Source: Microthyrium microscopicum (Eukaryota; Ascomycota; Dothideomycetes; Microthyriales; Microthyriaceae). From it: a DNA stretch of 64,000 bases. The position numbers were made by a program, and so were the translations under genes. Below, piece by piece: positions 11,261 through 47,606 of the stretch. The notes below the pieces were generated by a model. That model was not told the DNA's origin and ran no database searches. It saw only the letters and a program-made list of their open reading frames with translations. Location of the stretch: the NCBI GenBank assembly GCA_010405405.1, contig MU004233.1, positions 571,835 to 635,834 on the forward strand, read 5' to 3'. The stretch's first letter is position 1, and the number at the start of each line of letters is the position of its first letter.

Positions 11261-11269
11261 CTTGATGGT

Positions 11270-14933: not shown

Positions 14934-16886
14934 ATGTTACCAAGCATATCGCAAGCCTTAGCTCCGCCGGCGAGTGCCATGGAAGATACCACTCGCCTCA
15001 TCAATTGGCTCTCCAGAGCTCCTGGCGAGATCTCGGAACGAATACTTCTCGAGGTGTTCCACCCATTGGAGCCATTTGAGAACGACCAATTTGGAGAACA
15101 GCTTGCACAGTTTCAAAAGCAGATACAAGCGGCCGCTTCTTTCATCTCATGCTCTCCGCAGCTTCTTCAAGTCTTATGGGATATTCGCGGAAAACTTGCT
15201 CAAGCTCTTCTCACCTATCCTGCGGCCACACTTCTCCCAATGCAGTATCATAGGCCTGTTGAAAACGTTGCGACTCTTATGACAACTTCGAAGCCTGATC
15301 AGCAGTTCTTCATTCCCGATCTCAGATACTACACTGACCCTTTCTCGCTTTTCCTGCTGGACTCCACCAATCGCTCCACTGATCAGTCCATCGCTCACTT
15401 CAAAGTTGCTGCTGGCAGCTCACAACTGGCGAGTCTCATCACAAAGGTTGTGACAGAAAAGCCGACGATTTCTTCAATCATCATCCAATCCTCCTTAATG
15501 CCCACACCATCGTTCTTCGCCGAAGATCAAACCCTGCGACTTCAACATCGTTTGACCATGGCCATTTTTCGGCTTCATTTCTACGTTGCAATGACCAGAT
15601 GGACTCCAAAACTTTCCGACCAGGAAATTATCTACTGGTTATTTGACAACCCCCCGCAGGAACCTGAACTTCATGGACATGGAACACGAAGTCTCAGTAA
15701 GGAAGAAGTCCAAGAGGTACGGATCATTGTGAAATGGATAAGATATTTACATGGTCGGTTTTCGCATCTCCAACCCGCCAACGGATCTTTTGGAGTCATT
15801 GGACGGATTCTCCAATCAGATCTTGTCAAGTCGCTTTTTGGACCCAGTGTCTCAGTCTCAAGCCCACTCCGACCTCAAGAAGCTTCGCAATGGTCGGAAC
15901 AAGATCATTACCAGCTGCCCTTTTCTCAAAAGCTTCGGCCAGACATGCCACTAATAGATAGATTCGAAGACGATGTTGAAAACGAATTGGAGCTTGGCAA
16001 TAGATGGTCTCGCCTTGAGTACCCGAATGATGGCGACTTTCCTTTCGAGCTCTGCGAAATTGCTACAGATCGCCAGACCAAAGACTACAACCGAAATGTC
16101 GACGTTTGTATTCATCGCTTCTTTCCGGTTATCGATGCCTGCACTGGAAAGTATAAAGGCCAACACAGCGGAATCAAGCCCATCAACATTAATCGCACAG
16201 AACGAGCTGAGAACCTCCTTGAGTGGTGTGACAGAGGGTAAGTTCTTTCTGCGCTACAACACCTTCAATCTTTTCATCACCAAAGTCTCGTCATTAAATT
16301 TCTGCATATCATGTCGTGGCAATCTGAGACCACTTATGTGCTCTATTGTTAAGTCAAAGTATAATATGGCTCTGTCAGAGTCAGATCACCTCTTCTTCCC
16401 AGAGCCCATCCCCCTCCCAGCACAACATACTTCTCCAATCGCTTGCTAACAAATTCCAGTTATCATGATACTTTACATCAGGCGTCCTTCGACTCTCTAC
16501 CTGGTTGGAAGATCATCAAAAGAACCGTTGAAAAGCGCTTCAGCCTGCGCTTGGACCGCTACAAGCACTCCCAGTGTTTTGCCGTTTCTTGGAGCAGTCG
16601 TGGAATTGGTTGCCAATGCTTTAATCGCTGGACTTGGCCTTCCTTTCTCCCAATGAAACGTCCGAAGAGCCTTTCCCCTACAATTCACCAGCTACTCGAC
16701 GCAGAGCAGAAGGCTTTTAACAAACGTCAGCATACTCTGGAGATAGGATGGGGATTAGCGAAGCGCGACAAGAGATATGAGTGTTATCCGCAGGGCTACG
16801 ATACGTATAGGCAACCTTCGGGCATGTTGGTGGACGAGGTTGAGGATGATGATGAAGACCTATGGCAGGCTTTCGTTAGTTCGTAG
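14934..16886 (+). CDS. Tandem family copy A (F-box-like N-terminus)
   Basis: Exons 14934-16237 and 16460-16886, intron 222 bp; 576 residues. Start chosen at 14934 (ATG after ACGATC); another good ATG lies at 14979. The N-terminus reads L-S-R-A-P-G-E-I-S-E-R-I-L-L-E-V-F-H-P, an F-box-like opening, followed by helices rich in L and A. The middle has H-R-L-T-M-A-I-F-R-L-H-F-Y-V-A-M-T-R-W and E-I-I-Y-W-L-F. Then comes C-I-H-R-F-F-P-V-I-D-A-C-T-G-K-Y-K-G-Q-H-S-G-I-K-P, and after the intron L-L-D-A-E-Q...R-Q-H-T-L-E-I-G-W-G-L, ending in an acidic tail. These blocks recur in all neighbours to 47.6 kb. I do not recognise the family and assign no function; substrate recruitment through the F-box-like part is a guess. 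Confidence 0.82.
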
Positions 16887-18272
16887 GATTGTCAATCCTT
16901 GTGGACTTTGTAGATACAGACACACTTGCAGTCAATAGATAGAAAGTTTTTCACAATCAAGCAAGTATGATGAAGTTAGTCCTTTTCTGAAGGCCTGTGG
17001 GGGTCATCCAGGTCATCACGCGGGGATAGAGAAGATGGTTTCCTAGCTGATTTCTTCTGGCTTCAAATGCCAGCAAACTTTGGAGCATGCTTGGGGAATG
17101 GTGCGTGACCACTCGGGCAACAAATCTATGCTCCACGCTTCGATCCACATTCCTCGTTCAAGTACATGCTGCGGAGCGAAGACGAAAATAGTGTTGCAAA
17201 CTGGTGGTGTTTTGCCGTTCCTTCGAAAGCATGCTGATTGCGAAGGGCTTGACATTCAAAGGCAGGCTTGTAGTCAGTATCCACCCACACGGGTACCCCG
17301 GATAGATAGTCATTATAAAGTGACAAAACTACATTTCAAGCTTGTCGCGAGACTGCGAGATTGAGCATAAAGCATCGGCTGGGCAAGACGGACGTCGTAC
17401 CCTCATGTTCTTCGTCTAATGTCATGCTGCCACCTATTTTCTACGTGTCCTCTTCACATCATGTATGTAAATATATATACATATATATCTATCCGCTACT
17501 GAGAATAAGGATTTTATTGTTGGAACTTTTATATAACACACTACCTGCTAGCAACGAAAGCGGAGACAACAATTTCAAGGGGTCCTAGGTTCTCTAACTC
17601 TTTAGCGTTGTCTTTTTTTTGATCAACTTGTCCTTTAGAAGGGCAATTCATACTGACGTGACGTTTGTTTGGTAATATAAGATACTGCGGAAATTAAAAG
17701 TGTTCGACGACTCTCTGTCCGTTTTCCTTGCGTTGCTGCTCTGTTTCTCATAAGCTTCAGAAGTCTAGAATACTGGATATCGGTTGGCTCAGTGGCCAAT
17801 AGATACCTACCTCCTGAGGTAGGTAGAGAATGATATCAATTATGTTATTTCTAGTATCTGCCAAACTTCACATGCCTCCTGCTATAAATTGTACGCTAGA
17901 ACATTTTTGATGATGCCGCGTCGTCACTTCCTTCATAATCTTCAGGCTGGGGCCGACCACGAGAACTCACCTGCATCTGTCAAGTTTCTCTCCTCTCCTT
18001 TGTAACCATCTCGCCACTACGACTACGATTCATATTCCTTCACATCCTCAGAGTGGTACAACCGTTTATGAAACTGCGCGATAGACAAGATCTACAAACT
18101 GCTCAACATCTAAATACAACAAACCGCGAGAAAGAATAATCGATAATTTCACTTCGACCCTTTACCGATAGCCGTAGTGCTTTCCAACGAGAAGCCCGAG
18201 TCGCTCTTTCGTATAGACGCTTCAGCTCTTCATCCTTCCTTTAAAGCGCTCTTTACCCCATCAAAGGTCGAC
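16887..18272. other. Intergenic between copies A and B
   Basis: No gene recognised. Contains an AT dinucleotide-like microsatellite near 17468-17492 and a perfect 10 bp inverted repeat at 17804-17825 (arms TACCTACCTC/GAGGTAGGTA, 2 bp spacer). The part next to copy B is presumably its promoter and leader, with CT-rich sequence around 17990-18010. Confidence 0.5.
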
Positions 18273-20133
18273 ATGCCTTCCCAAACTGCGCCATCTTCGG
18301 TCTCGGATCCCAGTAAACCGCTATGCTCACGGCTTTGCAACACTCCAATAGAGGTTCAAATGAACGTAATTCGACAATGTTTTTACCACTACGAAGCATT
18401 TCCATGGAGTCCGCACAGTTCGTTTCATGCGGAGGGTGTGTTCCGACGACAAATCCACTCCGCTTTTGCTTTCATCACATCCTCTCCTATCCTCATGTCG
18501 GCTCTTTGGGAAGCGCGCCAATATGTGGTCGAAGCATGGCTTACGTACCCACCTGGTACTTTTCTGCCTTCAGAATGCGAAAAGATAACATCTACCGTTG
18601 TACTGCTCCAAAAGATGTCTGATGGTTGTGCTCTGCAAGTGTGGTTGAACCCGACGACCAGGAAGAAACGAGTTTGTCAAATGATAATGGATCGATGTGT
18701 GGAGTACTGGAAACCCTCGGTTAGAAGCCTTCCCATGTTAGAGGTAGGTCCCCCAAGCCCAAACTGTCAAGTACAACAAGCTATCAACGCATCTGGTGGC
18801 TCTCATAGTCCCCGTCGTCGTTCGAGTGCTATGGTTCCCACTATACGCAATGGTCTCCTGACCACATTTTATGATGTCGCCGCAAAAGGAATTTTTGGCA
18901 CCTTGAAGTCTAGCCGCTTTCGTGTCCATCTGGTTATCTCATACTCATCGAATATAGGTTATGATTGAAGCGTTCAGACTGGGCAGACTAGTCTGTCGGC
19001 TCGCGCTCGATCGCCCTGCGGTTTGTGGCATAATTCTCAATTCTCGCATAATGCCTATGCCCTCGAAGTGGGCTGAGGACAAACCGATTGTTCTCGGTCA
19101 TTGCATGACCCGAGCTGTTATACGATTACAGCTACTCGTGGCGCTGATCACTCGACTCCCGTTTCTATCTCCGGATGAGCTTTTTTGCATCTGGGATCTC
19201 CAGGATTGCCACGATTCCCACCCTACGCGACACATTGACATTTTGCAGATCGATGACGTGCACATCATGATTCGATGGTTTCAAGCTTTTCATCAGCTGT
19301 GCCAAGAAGGAAAAATGCTGGACTCTGGCGCAGGCGTGGCTGGAGCGATTCTTTCCACAAAGCTTCTGAAGTCGTTGTTCTCACCCTGCCAGCCGAAACT
19401 TCTCAACGCGGTGCATGGAAGCAATTGGTCCGAGACTCTGCATCACGAACTACCTTTCGCCGGACCCCTCAATCCAATGAGGACTCTGGCAGATTATTTA
19501 CAGTACTACCTGGCTGGCTACCTTGGCGGTAACCTGGACCAACATGCAAACGACCATAATTCAATTTCTCGCAGATTGCGGGATTGGCCATTTAGAATTT
19601 GTACCCTCCACCGGTATTGCATTCATCGATACTTTCCGGTTGTCGACGAAATCACTGGAAACCCGAAACCGCAGCATAGTGGCATCAAGCCTGTCTACAA
19701 CATACGACGTAAACCACTTCGTCCTCGAGCCGCACCAAGTCCTCAACCAACCTTAGATCTGTTCGAGGGATGGCGGAGCATTGAGACGAAAGTCCAAAAG
19801 CTGTCTCCTATTAGCCCACTTTCTGTTCGACCTACATACTGCCGCAAATGTAGATCTTGGTATCGACGTTACTGGGCGACATGTTGCCGTCGCTACACCT
19901 GGAGTCAGCAGCGGCTCTTTATTCCAGCTGGAGCTTCTGCCATTCTGAGAAATATACTGACCAAAGAACATGACACGGCACGTTTGATGCAAATGCCTCT
20001 GGATCTTTGCTGGGGAGTTGATCCTCTCAAACCCTCTCCCTCCGGTCCTTACTTTGCCTCTGCCGAATTCGTCAACGGTGCATACCCTCCTGGACTGGAC
20101 ACTTTCTTTGAGCTCGACACGTCGAGACCTTGA
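18273..20133 (+). CDS. Tandem family copy B
   Basis: Exons 18273-18743 and 18958-20133 with a 214 bp intron (GTAGGT...ATATAG) give 548 residues; the open frame extends upstream but only from a GTG, so the first ATG (18273) is used. Blocks in order: C-N-T-P-I-E-V-Q-M-N-V-I-R-Q-C-F (F-box-like), A-L-W-E-A-R-Q-Y-V-V-E-A-W-L-T-Y-P-P-G-T, C-M-T-R-A-V-I-R-L-Q-L-L-V-A, C-I-H-R-Y-F-P-V-V-D-E-I-T-G-N, H-S-G-I-K-P and a C-terminal W-G-V-D...Y-P-P-G-L-D-T-F. A cysteine cluster C-R-K-C followed ten residues later by C-C lies in the C-terminal third and may bind a metal; D and E have a related C-x2-C...C-x-C. The intron position differs from that of A, although the protein aligns throughout. Function unknown. 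Confidence 0.8.
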
Positions 20134-20930: not shown

Positions 20931-22628
20931 ATGAATTCATCACCACGCCCTTTGGATGACATGGCATTCATTGCTTTGTTATCTCGAACTCCAGTTGAGA
21001 TACAAATGCTAGTTCTCCGCGAATGTTTTCCACCATTTGAGCCGTACGAGCATGACCGAGAAGGATTCATGATTGACGATTTCAAATATCAGGTACAAAG
21101 CGCGCTTTCACTAATGAGCTCTTCTCCGCTCCTTTTGTCGGTTCTCTGGAGTGGAAGAAACTATCTTTGCACGTCAATTGCGATGTACCCCAGAGGGTAC
21201 CTCATTTCAGCGGAATATGAACCTTTGGCACATCTGACCTCACTGATCCTGACCGCTTCTCCGACAACTGCGGCCGACTTTACCTCGGAAGATTTTGGAA
21301 GTGGCCAGCCATCATTGTTCGGAAAATTCGTTGCTGCTCATATTGGCGATCACTCTCTGGAAAAGTCCCTTGCTTACGTAGATTCGGTCATTGAGGCTGT
21401 CTCACTTGGAAAATCGATTGCCAAGGTGATTTTAGATTACCCGCATGTTGGGTCAACGTACAGGTGTTTTGGTCAGCCAATTCGTAGTCACTTCACAGAA
21501 GACAAGCCAGTTGTTGTGACGCATCGCATCACCCGAGCGATCTTCCGAATTCAGCTTTATATCGCAATGACACAATGGGGCACCAGGCTCACGGACAAGC
21601 AAATCATTGATTGGACGTTTTTCAGCAATTTTATGCCTCATGCAACTTTATTTCACCGCTATTCTCAAGTTCGGGAGGTTTTAGAGTTGCTGGAATGGCT
21701 GCAATATCTACACATCCGCTTTGCAACGCCAAAGTTCATGGATGGCACAGGTGGTACCCTTCGCACAATTCTTTCAAGCAGGTTGAACGGATCACTCAAC
21801 AGGAGTCCCATCCCGGCTCCAAGGATACAGAACTCTGATGAACAACAGCCAAGATTCTCAACGGTGACTGATCGCCTTCATATTGAGCTTAGCAAATACA
21901 CAAAGAAGATTCGTTCCCTTTTCATTCCACCTCCGCATAGAAACCAGTTAGAATGGCCATTTGAGACTTGCCCAATTTCAAACATTCGCGGGACATCCGG
22001 TCACCTTGTGGGTCCTGGCCACTACTGTATTCATCGATATTTTCCGGTAATCAACAAGCGTTCAGGAAAACCAAAAGGTCCTCATGGAACTACACCTCCC
22101 ATCATAATCAATCGAGGTTCGCGATCGATACAAGAGCCCGAGGATGTCATTATTTCTGCACGAGACTTTGCATATCAACCGACATTTGATGGCTTTCTCG
22201 GATGGCAAGATATCAATACCCACGTGCAGGAAAGATTTGTGCTGAAAACGGCCCAGTATAAGCGTTGGATCAAAGTCCAAGGCCTAGAGTCATGGCCTGA
22301 TCAGCGTTATGGGAAGTTTGCCTGGTTTTACATGAAGCCTTTTAGACCACCTGAGCTGTCCTTGTCCCCTGCCTACCATAAGATACTCGACTTGGAGTTT
22401 GCCACTGGTATAATGCGCCAAAAGGCGCTGGAAGTGGCTTGGGGAGTTGATCACTTGGGAAAGTTCGCATCTGAAGGCTACCACGCTGGCCCTGATAGGT
22501 TTGAAGCGGTAGAGAACAGCGTAGACTCGACCCGCGATCGGTGGGATAGACCGCACTGGACGAGATCGAAGAGTTTATATGGGCTTGGAGAAAGGGACGC
22601 TGCTGGTGAAAGCGAGCCTCCATACTGA
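20931..22628 (+). CDS. Tandem family copy C (intronless)
   Basis: A single open frame from the ATG at 20931 gives 565 residues; the frame upstream begins with GTG only. It is the cleanest copy for defining the family because no splicing is needed. F-box-like opening L-S-R-T-P-V-E-I-Q-M-L-V-L-R-E-C-F-P-P; then Q-S-A-L-S-L-M-S-S-S-P-L-L-L-S-V-L-W; H-R-I-T-R-A-I-F-R-I-Q-L-Y-I-A-M-T-Q-W; C-I-H-R-Y-F-P-V-I-N-K-R-S-G-K-P-K-G-P-H-G; F-L-G-W-Q-D-I; and near the end L-D-L-E-F...Q-K-A-L-E-V-A-W-G-V-D, then G-Y-H-A-G-P-D-R-F-E. It lacks the paired-cysteine cluster seen in B, D and E. No function can be assigned. Confidence 0.88.
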   Translation: MNSSPRPLDDMAFIALLSRTPVEIQMLVLRECFPPFEPYEHDREGFMIDDFKYQVQSALSLMSSSPLLLSVLWSGRNYLCTSIAMYPRGYLISAEYEPLAHLTSLILTASPTTAADFTSEDFGSGQPSLFGKFVAAHIGDHSLEKSLAYVDSVIEAVSLGKSIAKVILDYPHVGSTYRCFGQPIRSHFTEDKPVVVTHRITRAIFRIQLYIAMTQWGTRLTDKQIIDWTFFSNFMPHATLFHRYSQVREVLELLEWLQYLHIRFATPKFMDGTGGTLRTILSSRLNGSLNRSPIPAPRIQNSDEQQPRFSTVTDRLHIELSKYTKKIRSLFIPPPHRNQLEWPFETCPISNIRGTSGHLVGPGHYCIHRYFPVINKRSGKPKGPHGTTPPIIINRGSRSIQEPEDVIISARDFAYQPTFDGFLGWQDINTHVQERFVLKTAQYKRWIKVQGLESWPDQRYGKFAWFYMKPFRPPELSLSPAYHKILDLEFATGIMRQKALEVAWGVDHLGKFASEGYHAGPDRFEAVENSVDSTRDRWDRPHWTRSKSLYGLGERDAAGESEPPY

Positions 22629-25615: not shown

Positions 25616-26743
25616 GGGACTATTCGTTGCCTGGGATCTCCTCTAAGGGATCCGTTCTGACTCTGTGACTGTTTTTTAAGCTCCTGGAAGCCAAAGGTTT
25701 TGACGATACTTTGATATCCTTGAGCCATCATTCTTATTCTGTATCTATAGACTTTGAACAGCAGGGCCTGCACATAGAATTGAATTAATCATATGAACCA
25801 CACTTCCTCTCTTCTGAGCCTGTTGCTTCTACCTGGAATTCACATTAGAAAACCCAGGCGGGCTAGAACTGCGCGTAATTGTCTTTAAAAGCCAGTCTCC
25901 ACCCAGTCACGCCTGTTGTCTGAAGTCGTGGAGTTCAAACCCAAGAGTTCGCTGTAGTTGGCTGTCGCGCGAAAGAGGTACCTGCCTTATGGGTGATCTC
26001 TACCTCACCCGTTGTCTACTGAACAGTTCTGAGTCTAGCTCACCTCGTGCTCTGGTTATTCCTACCTCTATCTTGTCAGTTGTCAAACTTGCAAACTCAT
26101 AAACTCACAAACTCACAAACTTCTGATTGTTTAGACCTTCTTCCTCCCTCACTCTTCGACCTCTTAATCTCGCTGACCCTCAACTTCCTTGGAAGAACCT
26201 CCGCTTTCTTCTTAGTACCAGACGATAATCTTGGGCGAATCTTCGCTACTCTCATGTCACTTTCAAATCTCTTCTCGCCATCGCTCACTCGTTACCATCG
26301 CTCACTCGTTACCATCGCTCACTCGTTACCATCGCTCACTCGTTCCCATCGCTCACTCGTTCCCATCGCTCACCTTACCCCTAACACTACCTCCATACTG
26401 CCATATCATTCAAGCAAAATAGATTTGGCACCAAAATACATTGCTGTCTGCGCTCAGCGAATAGCACACAAAATCGTGCTACACCACTGTTATTCTCAAC
26501 AGCCTGCCGAATGTTACAACCTTCCCTTTATCCATACGTCCGGCTGCCACAGCTCTATTCTCGCCGTAATTAAGCCCAAACACCTTACGTCCTCTTTGGG
26601 GACAGAACGAGTGAGCCGTTCTGACGACGATTTTCATTGATGACGATGGCTGCCATAACACTTCTGGAAGAGCGACAACTTTAATTACCATTGTGTTCGA
26701 GGATCTGATGTAAGTTCTCTAAGCTAATGGGACTTGAAGCAGT
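25616..26743. other. Region between copy D and the relic
   Basis: No intact N-terminal family exon was found where one would be expected upstream of the relic at 26744. It holds the 17 bp tandem repeat at 26279-26374; a 197-residue frame (26047-26640) runs through that repeat and is low complexity. A preserved GTAAGT donor at 26711 and an acceptor CAG at 26741-26743 show that an exon once lay upstream. Confidence 0.5.
26279..26374. repeat. 17 bp tandem repeat
   Basis: Unit CATCGCTCACTCGTTAC occurs at 26279, 26296 and 26313; the next two units (26330, 26347) end in TCC instead of TAC; a partial sixth unit ends at 26374. The units are contiguous, without spacers, so this is a minisatellite and not a CRISPR array. 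Confidence 0.92.
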
Positions 26744-27943
26744 TTGTCCACGCAGAGATTGCTACAGAATCTTTGCTGCTTGGTCGACTGATGGCCAAGC
26801 TAATACTGGAACGTCTAAGGATCTGCAAGATGGTCACGGAGTCTTCCCTTATGCCACAAGCCGGTTACTGCTTTCATGAAGATCATTTCGTTCTTCTCAC
26901 TCATAGACTTACGCGGGCGACTCTCAGACTTCAACTATATGTTGCTTTGACCAAATGGAACGGGTTTTTGAGCGCCCAAGAGATCAACTTCTGGACATTT
27001 GCTAAGGAATTTGTCAATGACGAATATGCTGTGGACCTTCATCAAACTGAAGATGTTGGACCCGTTGTGGAGTTGCTTCAATTTCTTCACGGTCACTTCT
27101 CACACCTGCAAGCGGCAGACGGAGGAAATGGAATAATCTCTCAGATTTTATTGAGTAGGTTACTGAGCTCATTGTTTGCAGGCTGTCCTGCAGCAAAGAG
27201 TTCTCAACTTCGCAGAGAAGAGCGGTCAAAGTGGTCCTTCGAGCTTGACGCTGAGTTGCCATTTTGTCAACCCCAACCGATTTTGACGCTCGCAGATCAT
27301 CTGCAGTTTGACTTGGCTTCATCCTTCGCAGAGTTCCATTCTGAAATGGATTTCTGGTCCTACTACGATTGGCGAGATTGGCAAGATTGGCCATTCAAAC
27401 CCTGCCCAGTTTATATAGATCGCAAATGGGGAGGAAACAAAAACACAGGCATGCATTGTATTCACCGTTACTTTCCCGTTATCAGCAAAGTTACTGGGTC
27501 CAAACAGGCTCTCATAGCCTGATTTGCCCTCGTAGTACTATTAAAGGCATATCTCAGCGCTTTGAACCTTTGCCAATCTTGATCTCAGCTCGAGACTTTA
27601 CCCTCCAGTAAACATTTCATTCCCTGGTCGGCTGGCATGCCATTGAAACAACAGTACACAATCTTTTCACGCTCGACCTCGGGAAAAGAGGCTGCTGAAG
27701 TCAGAATCGCTGGTCTGATCGGTATACGCGATGTGATCGCCCTGAGCACAAGCTTCGGTGCGAACCTGAGCTTCGAATTCGCCCACATGGTCTATCTACT
27801 TGCCTCCGCAAGATGCTTGATGCTGAAGCACGCGGATTCCATCTACGCCAGGCAACTTTAGAGGTGTGCTGGGGTTTGAACAACCTGAAGAGGGGTTCAC
27901 AGGCGGGTATGCTCCAGGATTTGATACTTTTGAGAAAACGTAA
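26744..27943 (+). pseudogene. Degraded tandem family copy (5'-truncated)
   Basis: Begins right after an intact splice acceptor, at the position that corresponds to exon 3 of copy D, and stays open for about 255 residues with good family blocks: L-T-H-R-L-T-R-A-T-L-R-L-Q-L-Y-V-A-L-T-K-W and C-I-H-R-Y-F-P-V-I-S-K-V-T-G. The F-box-like N-terminal exon is missing. The frame then shifts near 27505; the other frame carries I-L-I-S-A-R-D-F (as in copy C) up to an in-frame TAA at 27609-27611, followed by L-V-G-W-H-A-I-E. Another frame later reads M-L-D-A-E...R-Q-A-T-L-E-V-C-W-G-L and a final shift gives the family ending G-Y-A-P-G-F-D-T-F. So it is a pseudogene with one lost exon, at least two shifts and one stop, most like copy C. 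Confidence 0.85.
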
Positions 27944-31518: not shown

Positions 31519-31708
31519 TAATCTGGCGCAAAGACCACGCGCCCCTTGGAACCCTTCTGCTGCTCTCAACCGCTTGATTGACGCTGATATGCAAGCACGA
31601 AGTCTCTGTCAACAGACGCTGGAAGTGGCCTGGGGATTGGAGCGGCCGAAAGAAGGGTTCACAGGAGCTTATTGTCCTGACCATTTTTATGCGTCGTCCT
31701 CGTCTTAG
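31519..31708 (+). pseudogene. Severed 3' end of copy E
   Basis: After the MITE, an open frame reads N-L-A-Q-R-P-R-A-P-W, then L-N-R-L-I-D-A-D and Q-Q-T-L-E-V-A-W-G-L-E-R-P-K-E-G-F-T-G-A-Y, which aligns with the last 60 residues of copy D. It ends at a TAG at 31706-31708. There is no start codon of its own at a sensible place, so it is the cut-off tail of copy E. Confidence 0.85.
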
Positions 31709-32837: not shown

Positions 32838-35308
32838 ATGGCATCTTCTTCAATCGCCAATCTCGATCCCGCGCGACAGTTCTGTTACAATCTTAATCGA
32901 TTACCTCTGGAAGTGCGCGAATTGATTGTTCTGGAATGCTTCCCTACGTATCGACGTTCTGATGGCATTAGTCGAAATGTGTTCGAAGCATCTGTCACTG
33001 CAGCTTTCAACATGGTTATGTCCACAAAATCCCTTTTCGAAGCTTTCGAGCTCGCGCGCACCAAGATAGCAGAAGCCTTTCATACCTACGAACAAGCTCG
33101 TATGAATGTTGGTACTTATTTCTTCATCACGAGTGTTACCGCATTCGCTAGCACGGAAGGACCAATGGAGTCTTCAAAATCTGTTCCCACTGGGACCGCG
33201 GCGGTGGCTCTGATGCGTCTTGAAGGTTATCACCGAGTTTATTATTCACGTGAACCTCTCTTGGAGAATGACAACCAAGGCAGCCTTGCGCTGATGAGAC
33301 TCCTGGATCTTTCTATGGATACTTTCAAGGTTGCGATGGCTATTACTCGACTTCTAGATAATGCGCCGGATCTAAGCGCCGAGTTAGGCCAGATTGTTCC
33401 TCAAAGTCATCGATATCTTGCCACACCGAAAGCCGACCGCGACACCATAATCATCAACCGGATCACTCGTGTCTTGCACCATATCCAGCTGTTCGTCGCA
33501 ATCAAACGTTGGCTGCCTAAGGATACTGACGACGATGTCATTCAATCAGGCGTTGAAGCCGTTATGAGACGATCACATCGTTATCAAGGTCTCCTTGAAG
33601 TTAGCCACACATTATGTTTGATGAGATTTCTTCAAAGTCTAAGTCTAGAAGCAAACACATTTGGCAATACGAAGTAAGTTTTCCAGCATCTCGAGGCATA
33701 TCTTGGACACACCCACGGCCTCCCAAGCTCTTTTTGGCTCCCAACGTATGGTATTCATGAAGCGCATTGGGGGGTTGCGCTGAAGAAATCACATGGTCTA
33801 TCAGCGCGTGTGAGCTCAAAAAAGCACTATTTGTTCAACACTAATAAGAATTAGCAATCCATCAGTTTCAAGATTACTGAAGATCATCTCGGAGTCAGAG
33901 ATCGTTGGACAAATCCTTCAGCGAACGCTTGACGCAGTTCCAATTTCGGCTCCTGTTGGCCAGTCTTCGAATGCGTATCTGCCAGATCTTCCAGAATCTG
34001 TAGACTATACCTCTGCCAACATAGCGACTCGCATGCGAAAAGACTCCAGCATGTATATCCACAATTTTGTTGGCTCTCGTCTAAAGTACTTTTCGGCCGA
34101 GTTCTACAATCTGGGTACTGCCTTTTGCGGCGCATGTAACGAAGATGGCCCGAATTACCATCAACGACGCCAGCTGCACATTCATGACTATTATCATCCA
34201 TTAGACAGCAATGGCGATGTCAAGGTAGGTTTTCAAGACACAACAAGTTCCCTAACGAACTCGATAGCTCCAAGGCCATTGCTTCCTACCGAGTCCAATC
34301 GAAAGAAAGCTTTGAAGAATCTGTATACTGACAAATATAGGCATCAGCCCAATTACGGCCGCTTAGATCCCCTCGACGCTTCGGCGAGAATCTCCAGCCG
34401 CTTCTTCAGGTGACTTTCGATGCCATGCATATGTTGGAGTGGTGGGGTACTGGAGAGGTTCATTCTGTCAAGCGACCATACTTCATCAAAAAAGCCCGCC
34501 GTGACTACTGCAGCTCTATGAGATATGCCGAACAATGTCAACCCCTGCGACCTCGCCGGGAGGATTGCTCTCAAGCTCTGAACACCATATATGACGCTGA
34601 AAAAAAGGAGTATCGTCTGACCCAAAAGAGTCTGAATTGGGAATCTACGGTAAGCTCCCTAAATCCTGAACGCCGAAGATAATGGCAACCTCCTATGACA
34701 CCCAAAACATGTGATATTTATAATCATACGCCATCGTTGCCAAGATATATTTACCACACTGTCCCAAATCGCCATCTCTTCCCTACGCCACGTTTTGACA
34801 ACTCTATCTAACACGTTTCTAGGACGGTGGTGGCTGGAACCGGCGCAACATCATTGCTGAAAGCTGGGATGAGGTCAAAGTCCGCTGGATCACCGAAGAG
34901 CTCTACGAATTAGTCTGCCCCGATGAGGATACTACACAACCTGGCACAGACATTCGCACGCTAGAATTTGCTCATGTTTTTGCAGTCGAGGCTAGCGATG
35001 ACGATGAAGACTCGCAATCAGGAAATACTGGCGATGACTATGTCGACTATGGCGAATACTGGGTCCCAGACTATGGCGCTTGGGCAGACGATGACGCATA
35101 TGAAGACTGGGCTAATCCTTGGGGTGCTTGGGGATCGGACAGCGATGATGATATTAACGGAGCAGGCTTTCCTGTATGGGGAGGACGCGGACGAGGACAA
35201 TTTCGAGCCTCATTTCGCGGGCGAGGACAAGCTCTAGGACAGGGCGGCGGAGGACGGGGTGGTCAAGGTGCTCCGCGTCGGGGCCAACCCGATGCAAACG
35301 GCTGGTAA
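32838..35308 (+). CDS. Tandem family copy F with acidic and RGG tail
   Basis: Exons 32838-33673, 33855-34224, 34341-34649 and 34823-35308; introns 181, 116 and 173 bp. The phases close to 666 residues, the longest copy. F-box-like opening L-N-R-L-P-L-E-V-R-E-L-I-V-L-E-C-F-P; middle N-R-I-T-R-V-L-H-H-I-Q-L-F-V-A-I-K-R-W; the C-I-H motif has drifted to L-H-I-H-D-Y-Y-H-P; then I-Y-D-A-E-K-K-E-Y-R-L-T-Q-K-S-L-N-W-E. The last exon has no counterpart in A-E: about 60 residues rich in D, E, W and Y, then a glycine/arginine tail with G-R-G-R-G, F-R-G-R-G and G-G-R-G-G. Such RGG tails commonly bind RNA or are methylated on arginine; here that is inference. All four exon junctions have good consensus. 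Function unknown. Confidence 0.82.
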
Positions 35309-36052: not shown

Positions 36053-37624
36053 TTACCCTTCTAACCCCTTCTTGAATCCCTTAGCCACGGTGATGAGGCA
36101 ATAAAGCATAACTCCCGCCCCCACGGCACTTCCAATTGACAAAATCCGTTGAGCCCGTCCATCCGACGTTATTTGTGCTTTCGTAATGCGATGTAGGAAG
36201 GCGGATGATGAGCTTCTAGAGACTTCAGCCCTTGAACCACGACCGCGATGTAACGTATAATAGAATCTACGAAGTGCGGACTCTTCATTAGCCCGTAGCA
36301 GCCAGGAATGAATCAGATCGTGCTGTCTATATCTTTGCTTTTCTTCTCGACGGTCTCTCTTTCTCCAGCCAACATGTTTTTTCGGTGGCAGCGGCTCAAT
36401 ATGAATTAGACTCGTCCCAAGGACAAGTCTATCGCTGTTGCTTGTGCGCTCAAAGTACTCGTGGATGCATGGCTGGCGTGGGCCAGGTGCACTCTTGTTC
36501 TGCAGATTGTTTACAGCACAAAATGGTTCGCCAATCTCATGGAAGCGCGTTGGCCGCATCACCGGGTTATGAGCGTGTATGGACCAGATCCAGTGGCTCT
36601 GATCAATCGGTATTCTGCGGATGTAGGAAGCCTTGTCTAGCTGGATTTTGCTTGCCAAGTCTCTATAGACCATGCTAGCGGTTTCACCAGCGCTCGTCAA
36701 AGGGGGGGCATTGATTTTGGAGAACAGTGCTTGGACAACCGGTGAAGCTATGATCGTATAAACATGTCGACTTGGAGAGGGAACTTTGCCATTGCTCCCT
36801 ACCCCCTTGAGAGTTCGACGCGTTTGTTCGGACAGATGGACTGTACGGAAGAAAACTATCAAAGCCATCGTATACGCCAGGTCTTTCTCGGTTGTAACTT
36901 TTCCACTTCTGACCAGCGTGCGGACCATGAATTCCTCGATCAGATCATCATGGACGGGATGTCCGGATAGCCATTCACGTACAGCAACGTAAAGCTGCAG
37001 ATGTTGCACAGTTCGCATCGCTCTATTGATGACTACCATGGCCCGATCAGATGCAGATGGGAATTGTTTTCGTGTAGGTATGAAGTCATCAATCAGACAT
37101 GCGCATAAGCTTGGAGCAGTCTCCGTCAGCTCAAGCACGGCGTATGAAATTGCAGAAGCCTCATAGTATAAGTCGAAGAATTTGTCGTAAGGTAGAGAGT
37201 TCCAATCAGGAGATACAAGCTTTCTCAAGACTGTGCATCTCTCATCAAGACCAGACAGTCCTTTCAATCTATTGAAGTCGTCAAGATCGAAAATCGGCTT
37301 CAAGCTCGCCTTAGCAGCGATCTTGGTAAGATCCGCGTAGAAGCCCAAATCGATTCTGTCAGCTTTAAAACTGTTGAACGACTCTATAAGCCATTTGCTT
37401 TCCATCATAAGAACAGCCCTTAAGCAAGGCGTGGCCAGAATCATCTGGAACGTACTGGAGATTTCCTTCTCAAATGTGCAGAGCTCAATCATCATCTCGT
37501 CAGGGCTGAAGGGCTGTAGGGAATAATGAAGAATTTTGATAAGGAGTTCATTAGGTAGTCGGTTAAGGTTGGCGGCCAGCCGGTCCACTAGAACTGCACT
37601 GGCGTTGTCTTTGAGAGCAGGCAT
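36053..37624 (-). CDS. Tandem family copy G (minus strand)
   Basis: A single open frame of 523 residues from the ATG at 37624. F-box-like opening L-N-R-L-P-N-E-L-L-I-K-I-L-H-Y-S-L-Q-P; middle I-N-R-A-M-R-T-V-Q-H-L-Q-L-Y-V-A-V-R-E-W; Y-T-I-I-A-S-P-V-V-Q-A-L-F-S; then C-I-H-E-Y-F-E-R-T. The C-terminal D-A-E/W-G block is not recognisable; instead there is a hydrophobic stretch (I-G-S-A-V-G-A-G-V-M-L-Y-C-L-I-T-V-A) followed by K-G-F-K-K, which looks like a C-terminal membrane anchor. The stop codon overlaps a GTAAGT donor, so an alternative spliced C-terminus is possible. Closest to copy H, its neighbour on the same strand. Function unknown. Confidence 0.8.
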   Translation of the reverse strand: MPALKDNASAVLVDRLAANLNRLPNELLIKILHYSLQPFSPDEMMIELCTFEKEISSTFQMILATPCLRAVLMMESKWLIESFNSFKADRIDLGFYADLTKIAAKASLKPIFDLDDFNRLKGLSGLDERCTVLRKLVSPDWNSLPYDKFFDLYYEASAISYAVLELTETAPSLCACLIDDFIPTRKQFPSASDRAMVVINRAMRTVQHLQLYVAVREWLSGHPVHDDLIEEFMVRTLVRSGKVTTEKDLAYTMALIVFFRTVHLSEQTRRTLKGVGSNGKVPSPSRHVYTIIASPVVQALFSKINAPPLTSAGETASMVYRDLASKIQLDKASYIRRIPIDQSHWIWSIHAHNPVMRPTRFHEIGEPFCAVNNLQNKSAPGPRQPCIHEYFERTSNSDRLVLGTSLIHIEPLPPKKHVGWRKRDRREEKQRYRQHDLIHSWLLRANEESALRRFYYTLHRGRGSRAEVSRSSSSAFLHRITKAQITSDGRAQRILSIGSAVGAGVMLYCLITVAKGFKKGLEG

Positions 37625-40270: not shown

Positions 40271-41071
40271 TACTTTGATTCCTGTACGGGCAAGAGACTG
40301 CAGCTCAATAGTAGTTGCTGGGGTGTAATCGTGGTTTTGGATTGGTAGAGAGGTTGTAGCATGTAGTGAGAATGATTAGAATATCAACAAGATTGTAAAA
40401 GGTTTTCTTGATATCTTCGAGCTCTGCTTAGTGAAAGGCAAAGTGACCTAAGACTCGACCTCAGAAACTTGGTATAGGTGCAGGTATCTGCTTGACGTGA
40501 AGAGCGAAATCAACTAGTACTAGAAAGATACCTCTGAGGCCAGGGAAAAGTGAAATGTTTGAGAGCATCATGACCCGCAAAATGTGGGCAAAGAATTGAT
40601 CAGATCATGCCGTGTTGAAGATTTGTCTGGAAACATTAGATACCTACTTAGTGTTTGAACATGAGAATTGTTTGAATAATGTAGAGAATAGGCTCAATTC
40701 ATCAGTATTGAATGTGACCGGCCGGGTTGTCTTCGTGCCCAGTGAATTTATAGTATGTTTGACATCGCTCACACACTTATACTCTACAATTTGCCCAAGT
40801 ACGCCTACTGAAGATCAACATCACATTGGTTGCACCTGCCACTCTGGCGTTAGATGTCCCTGACTATATTTCTTGAGGAAGTCACACACCACATAATATC
40901 TGAGGCAGCAACGATTGCTCCTACTGTATCAGGCAATCGAACCAATGGCTAATTCGAAAATTCAAAGCTTGAAAAGTTCTCACTCCAAGGAACTTTGACT
41001 CTACTCAATTCTTCTGCCTCGGACTTTTGATTGCTCATATCTTAACCTCCAATTGAATACTGTCCGACGTC
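40271..41071. other. Divergent promoter region of copies H and I
   Basis: 0.8 kb between divergent family members; expected to hold both promoters. No gene supported; the 83-residue frame at 40612-40863 has no motif. Confidence 0.5.
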
Positions 41072-43201
41072 ATGGCTTCCAAAAGCCTCAAACATCTTCC
41101 CTTCTGCCGAGCACTTGACAGACTTATTCCTGACCTTCAGACCCAGATTCTGCGATTGTGTTTCGTGCCCATGTCTGCACTGCAAATTCAGCGACCCGAC
41201 AACAGCGATGACAATGAGGCCGCGGACATATACAAGGCCTTGGAAGTCCTTCTTTCTGCGCCGCTTCTACTAGAGACCTTCTGGAAAGATCCACAAATGT
41301 TGTCCAGTTTCCGAACTTACACACCGGGCCGTAGCATAGCGCCTTTTGACTCTACTGCACGTGTCACGATGGCACTACTAACTCACCCGAACATGTAAGA
41401 AATAATCTGCGCCTATTTCGTCTCAGCACCCATGGAGCATTCGAAAGCGAGACTAGCCTTCACTTTACCTGGAGCTTGCTGATCCTCCGTGATTGGTTTC
41501 CTCAGCCATTGCACCTCTCCATGACTAAGTTTCGATCACTTTGTTCACATTCACTGACAATTACTAGGCAAACGGACTACAGATTTGTCGACAAAACGAG
41601 CAAATGGGATGACGACGCCACACATGGGCTTTACTTATCGAGTCCTCGAAAGCTTTCTGTCTATGTTTCCGTCATGCATGAAATCTATATAATGGCGGTA
41701 TCAATTCTACGATTGACTGAAACGGCACCGGAGCTATGCACGGTGCTTTTCCAGTCCAAGATGATGCCGCTTGCCGGCCTACCTAAAGTGGATCAGCACA
41801 CCATTTTGGTCTATCGTCTTCGGCGAGTGCTTCATTCACTCAAGTTTTTCGTGACTGCCTGCGACCTTCATCCTAGATCTATGGTAAGCGGAGCTACACA
41901 AAACTTCCTCGAAATCTAGAATCTGTGGATGTCATGCTGACAGCTCCTAGTTTTTAAACTTGCTAGATGTTCTTCGAGGTATCATTGCTTTGAAGCGCCG
42001 ATATGGTTTTGCTGATAACGAAGAGCCAAACGGGTACGAAAAGGCACTGGTAATTCGATTTTTGCAAGATTTGGATCAGTTACCGCAGGTAGGTCAATCC
42101 GGTCACTCATATATGTTAAGAACGGTCTTGAGTGGCTACGCACGAAGCTGCCGTGCCGTTCGAGGGTTTGATAAATCCGTGACGTTACTATACTTACCGG
42201 CTCCAGAGTATCAAAACGCAGAACGCCGACGTCAATCGCATCATGTCCTCGGATTTGACCCAGAAAATCCTTTTTAGAGCTAAAACGTTGAACTTGGCCA
42301 CAAATACAAAATATGTCAACAAGGATCATCGCCGATTTGCCTACGAGTTTCCCCGCCCGCTATGCGATCAACATATGTGGCCTGAAGCCAATTGGACAGG
42401 CTGGAAACTTCACAAGTGAGATACTTTTACCCTGAACCCCATTCAATAAATGCCTCATTGACGGTTTTGACATTGCACAGGTCATTTTGCATCCATGTCC
42501 TTTTCCGACCTCTATGCGAGGTTACCCATCAACCGAAAGAATCATGCGCTCTCCGACGGCTCCGTGCCAGTTCATATCGGGCGATAACGGCTCCGGCCAA
42601 GAAGAGACAGCTCACCTTCAATGACTTCGCCGCCCAAGGCTGGCGAAATATTGACACAAAATACAGTCAGCGACCCTACTCTGTGTCACACATGTGTGCT
42701 CATCCAGAAGGACACTGTCCATATAGTCGATTCTCGCGACCCCTTTTCAGGCCTCCGGTGAAATATGGTGGCACCGAACATGATCTTGAGTCATTCAGAC
42801 CTGCACTGAGTGGAAGAAGTAAGCTGGAAGTACAGATGAGAGACAAGGAGGATAGCCCTGTGTGGCTGCGCGTGAACTTGAAGCCTTGTTCGGCGCGTCT
42901 GAATGATATCCTTATTGCCGAGGAGACTCAAGCATGGCTCAGCCAAACCACACTACACTGGAATGGGCAAAAGATCAAGCTCCCTACCGCTGACAGTCAG
43001 ATACCCTTGATTCGATATCGTCGAGGTAAAGAACTAGGTCATTTGGAGGTGTTCTTTGTCTCTGACCATATCTTCAAGTTTATGAATGATGAGGACATGC
43101 TTGAGTCAGATATGGGAAGCGCTCCGGTCAGTACGGAGCTAAATTTCAGGCTTGATTGGCAACGAGAGCTGGAGTATGAGACAGCTTTGATGGCCGTGTA
43201 G
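41072..43201 (+). CDS. Tandem family copy I, frame shifted at a T run
   Basis: Exons 41072-41394, 41568-41883, 41951-42415 and 42481-43201; introns 173, 67 and 65 bp. Opening L-D-R-L-I-P-D-L-Q-T-Q-I-L-R-L-C-F-V-P; middle V-Y-R-L-R-R-V-L-H-S-L-K-F-F-V-T-A. In exon 3 the frame ends at a TAG (42275-42277) directly after G-F-D-P-E-N-P-F; one T fewer in the run of five at 42271-42275 would keep the frame into A-K-T-L-N-L-A and on to the donor, and the phase at that donor then agrees exactly with the last exon (S-F-C-I-H-V-L-F). As it stands the protein stops at about 320 residues; otherwise 607. Either a sequencing error in a homopolymer or a first inactivating mutation. The C-terminal third has no recognised motif except a weak E-E-T-Q-A-W-L-S-Q-T-T-L-H-W block in the usual D-A-E/W-G place. 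Confidence 0.72.
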
Positions 43202-44307: not shown

Positions 44308-46475
44308 ATGGGCTTTTCGCCAACTTCCTTCCAGGAGCAGAGACAGCTTGCAATTTGTTTGCAACGGTAAGTCAATCTCCTAACTGGCGTGCTCCCATCT
44401 ATTTAAATGGCTCCCACGAAGGCTTCGAATCAACCACCGCTATGTTTTCCATCGCATTCGATAGACTGTGCCACTCTGAGCGCTCTTTATGGTATCTGTC
44501 GCACTCGATAGCAGAGCGTATCATCATATGAGCTACCGCATTCGATGAAATGCGCCAGCCCGAACGCCCTTCGTGGTATTTGACGCGCTCGATGTCGCAT
44601 CATTCCAAGTGGGAGCCATGAGAGTGGATGGGAGCACCCCAGTTCTTTGGTTCATCGGCTTTTCTTCTTCGTCGCACTAATGATCTACAGAATGCCTTTG
44701 GAGGTAACCTGCCAAATTGTCAGATTCCTCCTACCTGTTTGTCATCATCGAACCATTCCTGAGTTTTACGAGGAGCAAATTCAAATGGCTTTCCGAATGG
44801 TGAGTCGTCAAATCTCGACACACGGTGGAAGCTAACTGGACATATTCAGCTGGTGTCTTTACCTACGCTTATGGAAGCCTCCAGACTCGAAATTGGTTCA
44901 CTATTTCTGGCCTTGTCGAGCCACGAAAAACAAAACGTCAAGGTGATGCCCTGGATAGCGACTGTATCGAAGAGTCTTGCCTTTATCAATGGTCCGCCGA
45001 TATTTCATATTCAGCCTTCACTTAGATTTCCCCGTTTTTCATCCGACAAGCTTTCGAATTGGGTTTATGATGCCGAAACGTACCTAGATTCATATTTCGA
45101 AGAGAACGGAAAGATTCAAAGTCCTAAGGAAGCCGAATTGTTGTTGGAGCTCTGCCACGAAGTGTGCCATCCGGCAATACTTATTGTGGAATTAATCAGC
45201 GACTCCCCCGACCTTGGCAATCTGCTTTCTGTCATTCTTCCATCCCACCAGATGGCGAAAGCCGACCGGCATGCGATTGCCTTCTCTCGAATCACAAGAG
45301 CCCTCGTGGAGTTACAAGCCTATATCGTCATGCGCAGCACGCTTGTGCAATTCTCCACGGACCAGATTGATGCTCTGCATGGTAAATACATGGCAGAATA
45401 TGCTGGCCACCATTATAAGCACGCAGATCTCGGAACTTTAGGTGCAAAGCAACGCGTGCTGGCGCTAATGGAATTTCTGACCAGTATTCGTTCTACAATC
45501 TCCCGGACACAATCTCAAATGCACTTGATCGAGCTCATCCTATCAACAAACCTTGTGCGACGGATCACACTGTGTGGGTTGGATGAGTGCTGTCACCCTT
45601 TCGACTCGTGGTTAGGTTATTGCCTCGCCATGTATACTCGTCGATGTCGTGACAAGCCCAACCGGCGGTCTGATGGCCAAGGTCAACTTTCCGGTTGGAC
45701 GGTTCATGTTTGCCACTCACCAGAAAGTAGGAATCCCAAGCATCTATGCATTCATATGCATAGATTTCTTCCACTCGACAAAATCTCGAGGAGATTCAAA
45801 TCATCGGGTCGTCTCTTAAATACACCACGCATCTGGAGTCAGCGCGAGCAAAAGCCCAAGTTCTGCCAGGAGCCCGGACAAATCAGATTTGGTGACTCCT
45901 ATCTCAAGGGATGGAAATGCGACTATCCAGGTCTCAATCCTCGCGTGTGTCGCCGCATGTATCGCTACATACCCAAATGGCCAGCTCGCAGACCTTACGC
46001 CGTCTTACATGCATGTCCGACCATGAGACAGGAAGACCCATGTCGAAGCCATCGTATTTTCCGAGTGAGACCGCCACCACGACACTGTTCCTCAGCACTG
46101 GACGCCATGTTTGACGCGGAGGAAAAGCAAGCTCGATTACGACAATTGCGACTGGACTGGACTTGGGGTCTACAGTCAAAGCACCGATTCGCCAGGTCTA
46201 TGCCAGACGGTGCCATGATTGACCCGGCAGAGGTCAATGTGCCGGTGGTATGGGTGGGACATGACTTGTTTGTCTGGCCAGACGAGCTTGAGGAATACGA
46301 GTATCCTACTTTGTACGAGCGGCCCACATCTCGCACCAGCAGACATTACCCTGTACCTGCCGATGACCTATGCGAACACAAAGACCCTACAGCTCGCGAA
46401 TTTGGGACACTACGATTTCGGTATTGCGATCAGAAACATGAGTCAATGGCACGTGAGCAAGAGAGAAACTTCTGA
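44308..46475 (+). CDS. Tandem family copy J
   Basis: Exons 44308-44366, 44691-44799 and 44850-46475; introns 324 bp (contains a MITE) and 50 bp; 597 residues. The first exon encodes only 19 residues before the F-box-like opening R-M-P-L-E-V-T-C-Q-I-V-R-F-L-L-P, which starts the second exon; relic K has its first intron at the same place. Later blocks: S-R-I-T-R-A-L-V-E-L-Q-A-Y-I-V-M-R-S, C-I-H-M-H-R-F-L-P-L-D-K, and M-F-D-A-E-E-K-Q-A-R-L-R-Q-L-R-L-D-W-T-W-G-L, the best conserved form of the C-terminal block. The region between the last two blocks is rich in C, R and W. Function unknown. Confidence 0.82.
44382..44644. mobile_element. MITE in the first intron of copy J
   Basis: About 263 bp bounded by inverted repeats: left from 44382 (AACTGGCGTGCTCCCATC), right ending at 44644 with the matching inverse (GATGGGAGCACCCCAGTT); a further matching block (ATGGCTCCCAC/GTGGGAGCCAT) lies inside each end. 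The interior has a diverged direct duplication of about 65 bp (around 44453-44517 and 44531-44597, each with CGCATTCGAT and a CTC/CTT...GTGGTAT or ATGGTAT block). No coding capacity. The target duplication is not clear. Without it the intron would be about 61 bp. Confidence 0.8.
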
Positions 46476-47028
46476 GAGTGCGGTCTAGAGCTTTGCGGGA
46501 ACATATTTCGGGCGTCTTAAGTCCAGAACACGTAAAATTGATGGTTAAACCCTATATTTGGCTATGGCATAGGCCGGATGACTCTTCTATGCGACATTTT
46601 CTTCCATTCCGCTGTGAACAATTCGACGAGAGGAAGTTAAAACTGGGAATGGGAAACTAAGACAAGGTGCCTGTGTCAGTCAGAAAGCAGAGAAATGACA
46701 TAGAATCACATCATAGGCGTGCAATCCCACCAATGAGCTGTGAAGATTGTGAAATTTCCTCTGCAGCTTGAGTGTTCCAGGATTTATAGTATCATTTAGT
46801 AGCGGCCTACGCCGTTAGTAGCGGAGTTACTTTGCGACAAAATCATTGCTCGGTCATACGAGCCCAGATACAAAGCCCAGCACACTGCTAGATTGCCTGC
46901 AAAACATATTATCAGCTATATTGGTCAGCTCTCTCCATCTGTCGTCGCTAGCACTGAGCCTTCAAGCTTATTCCCTCCTACTCATCCTCTAACTGCATTG
47001 ATATTATCGTACCAGTCTGGCAGTCTTG
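46476..47028. other. Intergenic between copy J and relic K
   Basis: No gene seen; it should hold the J terminator and the leader of relic K. Confidence 0.5.
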
Positions 47029-47606
47029 ATGCGTACCACCAAAACGATGAAGGAGCGCGAGAAGGCAGCTCAAAGAGAGGCTGAGCTGTTAGCTCAGATG
47101 GCAGCAAAGTCCTCGCAAAGTTTCTCATACGGTTTGGAACGGTAAGATATCCTGACAGCCCAATCCTCACATTTACCATCAAATCCATTTACCGGGTTTG
47201 GTCATGAAGTTTGAAAACTAAAATGCTTGGTCTTGGTGAAGTTGATATTACGATGTCCAATCTATCAAAGTCTCTTTCTCTTGAATTTAATCAACTTTAG
47301 GCGACCATTAGAATTGATTCACTTGATTATTCGCTTTCTTTCTCCAATCCCACCCTCAGAAAGATTACCGCTTTGGCTCTTCGAGCGCAATTTCCAACGA
47401 AAGATTTAGACAGCATTTCATATGGTAGGTATCTCAAAGCTGCCATCGCGGTAAAGCCATGACGAAGGCCTATACTGACTAATTTATGCTAGGTATTGTT
47501 TTCACAACAGCTCATGCACGCTTCAATCTTTGAATCACGGTGGCTGTTGCGGGCAGACGGCCTCTATCGAATGGTCACTCAGTGCTACACAGACCATTCA
47601 AGTTGA
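47029..47606 (+). pseudogene. Truncated tandem family relic K
   Basis: Three N-terminal exons, 47029-47141, 47301-47424 and 47493-47606, join in phase with good splice sites (introns 158 and 68 bp). The first exon gives a charged, probably coiled helix (K-E-R-E-K-A-A-Q-R-E-A-E); the second gives R-P-L-E-L-I-H-L-I-I-R-F-L-S-P, the F-box-like block at the same exon position as in copy J. An in-frame TAG at 47407-47409 interrupts the second exon, and the third exon ends after 37 codons. Nothing of the middle or C-terminal blocks remains before the dynamin gene. It is the last, decayed member at the right edge of the array. Confidence 0.75.

What the first reader, a model, noticed from the sequence alone, without database searches (positions are those of the whole stretch)
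14934..47606. A 33 kb tandem expansion of an unrecognised fungal protein family with an F-box-like N-terminus
Twelve related units (A, B, C, D, relic, E, F, G, H, I, J, relic K) sit side by side between two conserved single-copy genes. Seen directly: the same ordered blocks in each, namely R/P-x-E-I...I-L...C-F-P near the N-terminus, H-R-I-T-R-A...L-Q-L-Y-V-A in the middle, C-I-H-(R/E)-Y-F-P and a C-terminal D-A-E...Q..L...W-G. Known: F-box families often expand rapidly in fungi. Inference: the N-terminus may bind Skp1 and the rest may be a fast-evolving recognition module. I know no named family with this architecture.
Basis: partly seen in the sequence, partly recalled or inferred. Interest (0 to 1): 0.85.

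Follow-up and report, generated by a model that had tools for sequence, protein, structure and literature searches.

The report
Tandem array of unassigned fungal genes
A filamentous fungus carries, in a row, about ten old and very different copies of one gene (plus remnants) whose protein belongs to no family we could match; a possible link to the protein-disposal machinery rests on one short helix and is unproven.

Summary
Between an aspartyl-protease gene and a dynamin-like gene lie ten related genes (A-J; E broken, I uncertain), one clear relic (26728-27989) and one marginal relic (K). Nearer copies are more alike, as tandem duplication gives. Over longer stretches copies share about 21-46% protein identity, with third codon positions near random: old duplications. 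Unit E is split by a 576-bp terminal-inverted-repeat element. Window 1-1000 looks RIP-mutated; the array does not.

The F-box reading is only partly supported. Helix 1 (P-x-E-I...I-L) matches F-box helix 1 better than all 200 shuffled profiles, but helices 2-3 do not (23 of 200 shuffles as good; score 7.7 against 19-45 for eight real F-boxes). No Pfam model reached its cut-off in the pieces scanned. Two structure predictions give a similar helical core of about 300 residues without a significant solved match. I do not file it as F-box. The likeliest specific mechanism is a diverged Skp1-type adaptor (0.35). Ordinary kind of event, unassigned family: interest 0.3.

The parts
14934..16886 (+). 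Unit A, exons about 14934-16225 and 16460-16886 (intron 16226-16459 with a weak donor, GTGTGA); no internal stop in this model
18273..20133 (+). Unit B, exons about 18273-18743 and 18958-20133 (intron GTAGGT..TAG)
20931..22628 (+). Unit C, single-exon gene of 565 aa
23414..25615 (+). Unit D; intron 24144-24366 at the place and phase of E's 29789-29881; the first intron is uncertain (23675-23958, 23783-23925)
26728..27989 (+). Relic R: middle and C-terminal blocks with one frameshift and two in-frame stops; no N-terminal block found
29178..31708 (+). Unit E: coding parts 29178-29788 (possibly with an in-frame intron 29445-29597) and 29882-30944, then an inserted element, then the C-terminal block 31521-31708; broken by the insert
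30945..31520 (.). 576-bp element with terminal inverted repeats inside E (outer 48-nt arms 96% complementary, 87-nt inner arms 74%), flanked by ATCTG on both sides
   Evidence: the ATCTG repeat was read by eye
32838..35308 (+). Unit F, modelled as four exons (introns 33674-33854, 34225-34340, 34650-34822, the last weakly supported); the last exon ends in an RG/RGG-rich tail
36053..37624 (-). Unit G, single-exon gene of 523 aa; the C-terminal W-G block is lost and the protein ends in a hydrophobic segment followed by basic residues
38391..40270 (-). Unit H, two exons (intron 39562-39378 on the - strand, GTAAGT..CAG)
41057..43201 (+). Unit I, strongly diverged; several introns needed, model uncertain
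44308..46475 (+). Unit J, exons about 44308-44366, 44691-44799 and 44850-46475
47299..47555 (+). Relic K: possible N-terminal remnant with one stop; marginal

Best explanation
An old tandem array of a fast-diverging family of mostly helical proteins, without an obvious secretion signal (judged by eye), in a filamentous ascomycete. The array grew by local duplication: nearer copies are more alike, D and E share an intron position, and a relic lies within the array. The copies then diverged while keeping a common protein pattern. The likeliest specific mechanism (inferred) is that the N-terminal domain is a strongly diverged F-box-type docking module, keeping only helix 1 in recognisable form. 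It would hold the protein on Skp1 or a similar hub, while the helical middle part and the changeable C-terminus recognise different partners.
For: Homology of the units. Tandem origin: similarity falls with distance along the array (Spearman -0.59; 5 of 2000 permutations as extreme; nine genes and the relic, I left out, mostly single exons). Protein pattern kept: identity at codon positions 2 > 1 > 3 in 14 of 14 pairs examined, third position 0.26-0.37. Shared D/E intron place and phase. Helix 1 resembles F-box helix 1: 0 of 200 column shuffles as good, score 16.2, inside the 14.1-29.5 range of eight real F-boxes. PF12937 F-box-like touches G residues 20-34 at E 0.022, below cut-off. Two models, with largely the same alignment rows, give the same helix order over residues 1-300. 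C-termini differ: RGG tail in F, hydrophobic tail in G.
Against: F-box helices 2-3 are not detectable: score 7.7, 23 of 200 shuffles as good, real F-boxes 19-45. Whole-domain profile comparison with F-boxes aligns 13 columns, probability 3.7%. No Pfam model reaches its cut-off in the pieces scanned. No PDB match at E <= 0.001. The leucine before the proline, usual in F-boxes (recalled), is A, T or M in seven of ten genes. The helix-1 motif is also shared, more strongly, with the 2EXR-like neighbour. No known substrate-binding repeat was found. The codon-position pattern is also seen in the three pairs that include the relic, and comes from protein-made alignments, so it does not show that every copy works.
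Confidence: 0.35

Rival explanations
1. The proteins are a separate all-helical family that does not act through Skp1; P-x-E-I is just the cap of the first helix of a larger helical domain. They might be regulators, scaffolds or recognition proteins whose diversity is the point, such as allorecognition.
For: Both models show helix 1 as part of a run of helices over about 300 residues rather than a clearly separate small domain. Only helix 1 resembles F-boxes or the 2EXR-like neighbour.
Against: Helix 1 is among the most constant parts of the N-terminal block, which fits a docking role. No alternative function has positive evidence; PDB and viral fold matches are all E >= 0.08.
Confidence: 0.45
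2. The array is mainly a decaying remnant: duplicates drift, are hit by a transposable element and become relics, with few or no working copies left.
For: One relic has two stops and a frameshift, E is split by an insert, K is at most a fragment, and gene models of I and F need several introns. The codon-position pattern does not set the relic apart from the others.
Against: A, B, C, D, G, H and J can be modelled without internal stops, C and G in one exon. Open frames of 500 codons and more in copies this old are hard to keep without selection (inference).
Confidence: 0.12
3. The family belongs to, or derives from, the fungal 2EXR family (PF20150).
For: The N-terminal family profile matches the 2EXR-like ORF at 62884-63999 with score 26.8, 0 of 200 shuffles as good. 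That ORF itself matches 2EXR at E 0.013, below the cut-off.
Against: Without helix 1 the match vanishes (score 9.2, 4 columns). No family piece matches PF20150.
Confidence: 0.08

Closest known systems
F-box / F-box-like domain (PF00646, PF12937)
   Same: First helix with P-x-[ED]-[ILV]...[IVL]-[LIVF] near the N-terminus; variable remainder. Species-specific F-box families are reported in fungi: 14 such families in Ochroconis mirabilis (PMC4738786, passages)
   Different: Helices 2-3 not recognisable, a longer loop after helix 1, no model above cut-off, no known substrate-binding repeats. Not every fungus shows such expansion: no duplication among 31 F-box proteins of Macrophomina phaseolina (PMC7991009, passages)
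2EXR family (PF20150)
   Same: Similar first helix (PTEIQTVVLSHC in the neighbour against PVEIQMLVLREC in C)
   Different: Similarity ends with helix 1; no member matches the model
F-box gene expansions of plants and nematodes
   Same: Many diverging paralogues, often in tandem (recalled; papers seen only as search listings)
   Different: Those carry a recognisable F-box; here the copies have at most its first helix

Membership tests
F-box (PF00646/PF12937) | Significant match to an F-box profile | tested here: not met
   Best is PF12937, E 0.022, 15.0 bits against a 24.3-bit cut-off, profile positions 1-15 of 47, in G only, of 10 N-terminal segments scanned
F-box (PF00646/PF12937) | Helix 1 motif (LPxE[LI]xxxI[LF]) | tested here: met
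   Score 16.2, 0 of 200 column shuffles as good; real F-boxes 14.1-29.5. The leucine itself is kept only in F and G of ten genes
F-box (PF00646/PF12937) | Helices 2-3 with the VC..W and LW-type pattern | tested here: not met
   Score 7.7, 1 column, 23 of 200 shuffles as good; eight of eight real F-boxes 19.3-45.1
F-box (PF00646/PF12937) | Three-helix F-box fold | tested here: inconclusive
   Models show helices at 22-32, 46-64, 66-74 (C) and 25-35, 46-64, 66-74 (G), block pLDDT 60-90 there; no coordinates for superposition; no F-box-named chain in the 50 of 332 and 50 of 480 matches shown
F-box (PF00646/PF12937) | Binding to Skp1 in an SCF complex | not testable with these tools
   Needs an experiment or a complex prediction
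F-box (PF00646/PF12937) | Known substrate-binding part (WD40, LRR, Kelch; common but not universal) | tested here: not met
   No such Pfam match in the ORF pieces scanned
2EXR (PF20150) | Match to the PF20150 profile | tested here: not met
   No family piece matches; only the separate gene at 62884 does, E 0.013, 17 bits against a 24.8-bit cut-off
Tandemly duplicated gene family | Adjacent paralogues, nearer copies more alike | tested here: met

The most novel reading that the evidence does not exclude
A new, all-helical fungal protein family outside the libraries searched, in which only the first helix of an F-box-like docking site is kept. It is built out as a local arsenal of highly diversified receptors, with some copies given new ends (an RGG-rich tail in F, a possible membrane anchor in G), in a genome where RIP would be expected to mutate young duplicates.
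Probability: 0.2. Interest if true: 0.55.

Novelty: new member of a known kind. Interest (0 to 1): 0.3.

Why it matters
Tandem gene families without a domain name are a common unexplained part of fungal genomes (recalled). If this one docks on Skp1 it would show how far an F-box can decay and still work, and would mean that profile-based F-box counts in fungi are too low. It is also a tandem array in a genome that appears to use RIP, where linked duplicates should be mutated (recalled from the RIP literature); the copies are now too diverged to be RIP targets, so the array could help to date duplication against RIP. If none of this holds, it is one more orphan tandem family.

Tried and rejected
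Relatives elsewhere: a scan of bacterial and archaeal genome contigs with unit A's first exon (430 aa, one member only) gave 16 pattern matches, none a relative; a scan of viral contigs gave none. Neither collection is meant to hold fungi, so this says little. No fungal proteome was available.

Nuclear-receptor ligand-binding domains appear repeatedly among the Foldseek matches of G, but at E >= 0.43 and rmsd of 14 or more; rejected as noise. Designed helical proteins match the N-terminal profile at E 1.9e-5; rejected because the score is summed over four repeats that are each insignificant (best i-Evalue 3.9). Sub-threshold Pfam hits (FlgD, TraW_N, IgaA, Cmr2_Zn-bd and others) rejected as chance. 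Not scanned against Pfam: the C-terminal pieces of A, E and F (16461-16883, 31523-31705, 34341-34679), the second part of I and the later part of H's first exon; A's and E's pieces were in the NCBIfam scan. The ORF at 1959-3224 matches the family's N-terminal profile only in helix 1 (3 of 200 shuffles as good) and is not among the profile hits; not counted as a member.

Introns proposed by the aligner at 15855-15914 (A), 19503-19574 and 18617-18661 (B) and 24944-25015 (D) were dropped because the frame is open through them and they only skip extra sequence. The one at 29445-29597 (E, GTAAGT..AAG) also skips open frame, but it falls where D has a proposed intron, so it is left as possible.

Tests not possible: selection by dN/dS (third positions near random); comparison between isolates; number of copies elsewhere in the genome.
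Full report
What is there. The window is nuclear DNA of a filamentous ascomycete (inferred from intron-bearing genes and a RIP-like stretch). Around the array are a hybrid histidine kinase, a helicase-like gene, an aspartyl protease, a dynamin-like gene, a PHD/JmjC gene, an RRM gene and 6-phosphogluconate dehydrogenase. No genome is held for the window, so the species, the copy number elsewhere and the single-copy status of the flanks are unknown. Window 1-1000 looks strongly RIP-mutated (GC 0.218, TpA/ApT 1.84, (CpA+TpG)/(ApC+GpT) 0.02); that the genome uses RIP is inferred from this one stretch.

The array. An all-against-all comparison of 843 ORFs and a profile search built from 18 family segments recover A, B, C, D, a relic at 26.7-28.0 kb, E, F, G, H, I and J between 14.9 and 46.5 kb. 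The profile contains most of those segments, so its E-values (3.4e-188 to 0.0096) are inflated; the pairwise results are the independent evidence. With the N-terminal profile alone, the 2EXR-like ORF at 62884 (E 0.00057, best single piece 0.049) ranks above J's second exon (0.0019), so that exon is weakly supported by this test. K, an N-terminal remnant at 47.3-47.6 kb, is marginal: 1 of 200 shuffles as good with one query, 3 of 200 with another. The N-terminus of I gives 3 of 200 pairwise against G, but a strong profile match; the N-terminus of J gives 0 of 200.

Gene models. I wrote a spliced protein-to-DNA aligner. C and G are single-exon genes. A, B and H need one intron each, J two, and F and I several. 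D and E share an intron at the same place and phase (24144-24366 and 29789-29881), and perhaps a second one upstream (23675-23958 and 29445-29597), though another alignment puts D's first intron at 23783-23925. These models have no transcript support. A, B, C, D, G, H and J can be modelled without internal stops. The relic has one frameshift and two stops. E is interrupted at 30945 by a 576-bp element whose outer 48-nt ends are inverted repeats (96% complementary) and which is flanked by ATCTG on both sides (read by eye). The C-terminal block of E continues beyond it at 31521-31708.

How it arose. Protein identity is 27-46% in the 14 pairs of pieces examined; other pairs go down to 21%, and short C-terminal stretches up to 52%. 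In those 14 pairs identity at codon positions 1, 2 and 3 is 0.38-0.58, 0.53-0.66 and 0.26-0.37, with 2 > 1 > 3 in all 14. So the copies are old, and third positions are close to random. The pattern fits protein-level constraint, but three of the pairs include the relic and the alignments were made on protein, so it does not show that each copy is functional. Over ten units (nine genes and the relic, I left out, mostly single exons) similarity falls with distance along the chromosome (Spearman -0.59; 5 of 2000 permutations as extreme), with an A-E group and an F-G-H group. That is what local duplication gives. The longest ungapped direct repeat found between units is 32 nt (seeds of 12), so the copies should now be invisible to RIP as I recall its thresholds. 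Composite RIP index values of the 32 one-kb steps from 15001 to 47000 are all negative.

What the proteins are. No family piece scanned matches Pfam above cut-off (pieces not scanned are listed under tried and rejected) or NCBIfam (18 members, two names below threshold). In the PDB sequence search the N-terminal profile's best matches are designed proteins, through summed repeats; the middle block gives one match at E 1.3. AlphaFold2 on shallow alignments (18 and 15 rows) gives for C mean pLDDT 58.6, pTM 0.55 and for G 63.5, pTM 0.61. In both, residues 1-300 form nearly the same series of helices. In G the ten-residue blocks there are mostly at pLDDT 60-94; in C residues 92-127 are below 50. 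The C-terminal part is undetermined in both. The two models share most of their alignment rows, so they are not independent. Foldseek finds no match at E <= 0.001 in the PDB for either model, or in the viral library for G.

Is it an F-box? The whole-domain comparison aligns 13 columns, helix 1, with probability 3.7%; a control with the family's middle block gave P 0.56. Against column shuffles the whole-domain score (17.1) and the helix-1 score (16.2) are each reached by 0 of 200, the helix 2-3 score (7.7) by 23 of 200. As a positive control, each of the eight F-boxes against the other seven scores 14.1-29.5 on helix 1, 19.3-45.1 on helices 2-3 and 33.3-67.5 on the whole domain (single sequences, and no shuffles were run for them). 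So helix 1 is F-box-like beyond chance, and the rest is not recognisable. Column shuffles are a lenient null for an amphipathic helix, so 0 of 200 is not strong proof of common origin. The 2EXR-like gene at the right end shares helix 1 even better, and nothing beyond it.

How it probably works. Shown: a tandemly duplicated family with one N-terminal helix of F-box or 2EXR type, a common predicted helical core, and variable ends. F's last modelled exon has an RG/RGG-rich tail. G ends in a hydrophobic 19-residue stretch (Kyte-Doolittle mean 1.92, the highest of 16 pieces; the next are 1.65 and 1.63, so this is suggestive only) followed by basic residues. Inferred: the N-terminus docks on a shared partner, most plausibly Skp1, and the rest recognises varied partners. 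I give this 0.35, and 0.45 to the broader rival that the domain has nothing to do with Skp1. The rival is a collection of possibilities without positive evidence for any one, so the adaptor remains the single likeliest specific mechanism.

Novelty. The listings shown name no family that I could recognise as this one, but papers cannot be searched by sequence and most lists were cut, so this is not evidence that it is undescribed. Of papers I read passages only: PMC7991009 (31 F-box proteins in Macrophomina phaseolina, no duplication found), PMC4738786 (14 species-specific F-box families) and PMC11412873 (F-box among families contracted in cold-adapted fungi). All others were seen as search listings. 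Species-specific F-box families are reported in fungi, hence new member of a known kind and interest 0.3.

Noticed in passing
window 1-1000: Extreme RIP-like composition: GC 0.218, composite RIP index 1.82; the other 63 one-kb steps are at or below 0.09.
   Followed up: partly
window 30945-31520: 576-bp element with terminal inverted repeats and an apparent 5-bp target-site duplication (ATCTG), probably non-autonomous, inserted in unit E; the one-kb step holding most of it has a negative RIP index, -0.24.
   Followed up: partly
window 62884-63999: Open ORF running off the window with a weak 2EXR match (E 0.013), sharing the first-helix motif with the array family.
   Followed up: yes
window 1959-3224 (- strand): 421-aa ORF without a Pfam match at E 0.01 containing an LPAEIKVII helix; another possible F-box-like orphan.
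   Followed up: partly
window 34823-35308: Last modelled exon of F ends in an RG/RGG-rich tail like those of RNA-binding disordered regions.
   Followed up: no
window 36056-36145 (- strand): G ends in a hydrophobic stretch followed by KGFKKGLEG, like a tail anchor.
   Followed up: no
window 25300-25430 and 30860-30945: D and E carry a C-x-x-C ... C-x-C pattern after the CLH block (RCFRCF...CSC; GCRRCD...CSC), possibly a metal site; B has a related cysteine cluster.
   Followed up: no
window 11269-11448 and 26278-26373: Minisatellites of 48-bp (3.7 copies) and 17-bp (5.6 copies) units.
   Followed up: no
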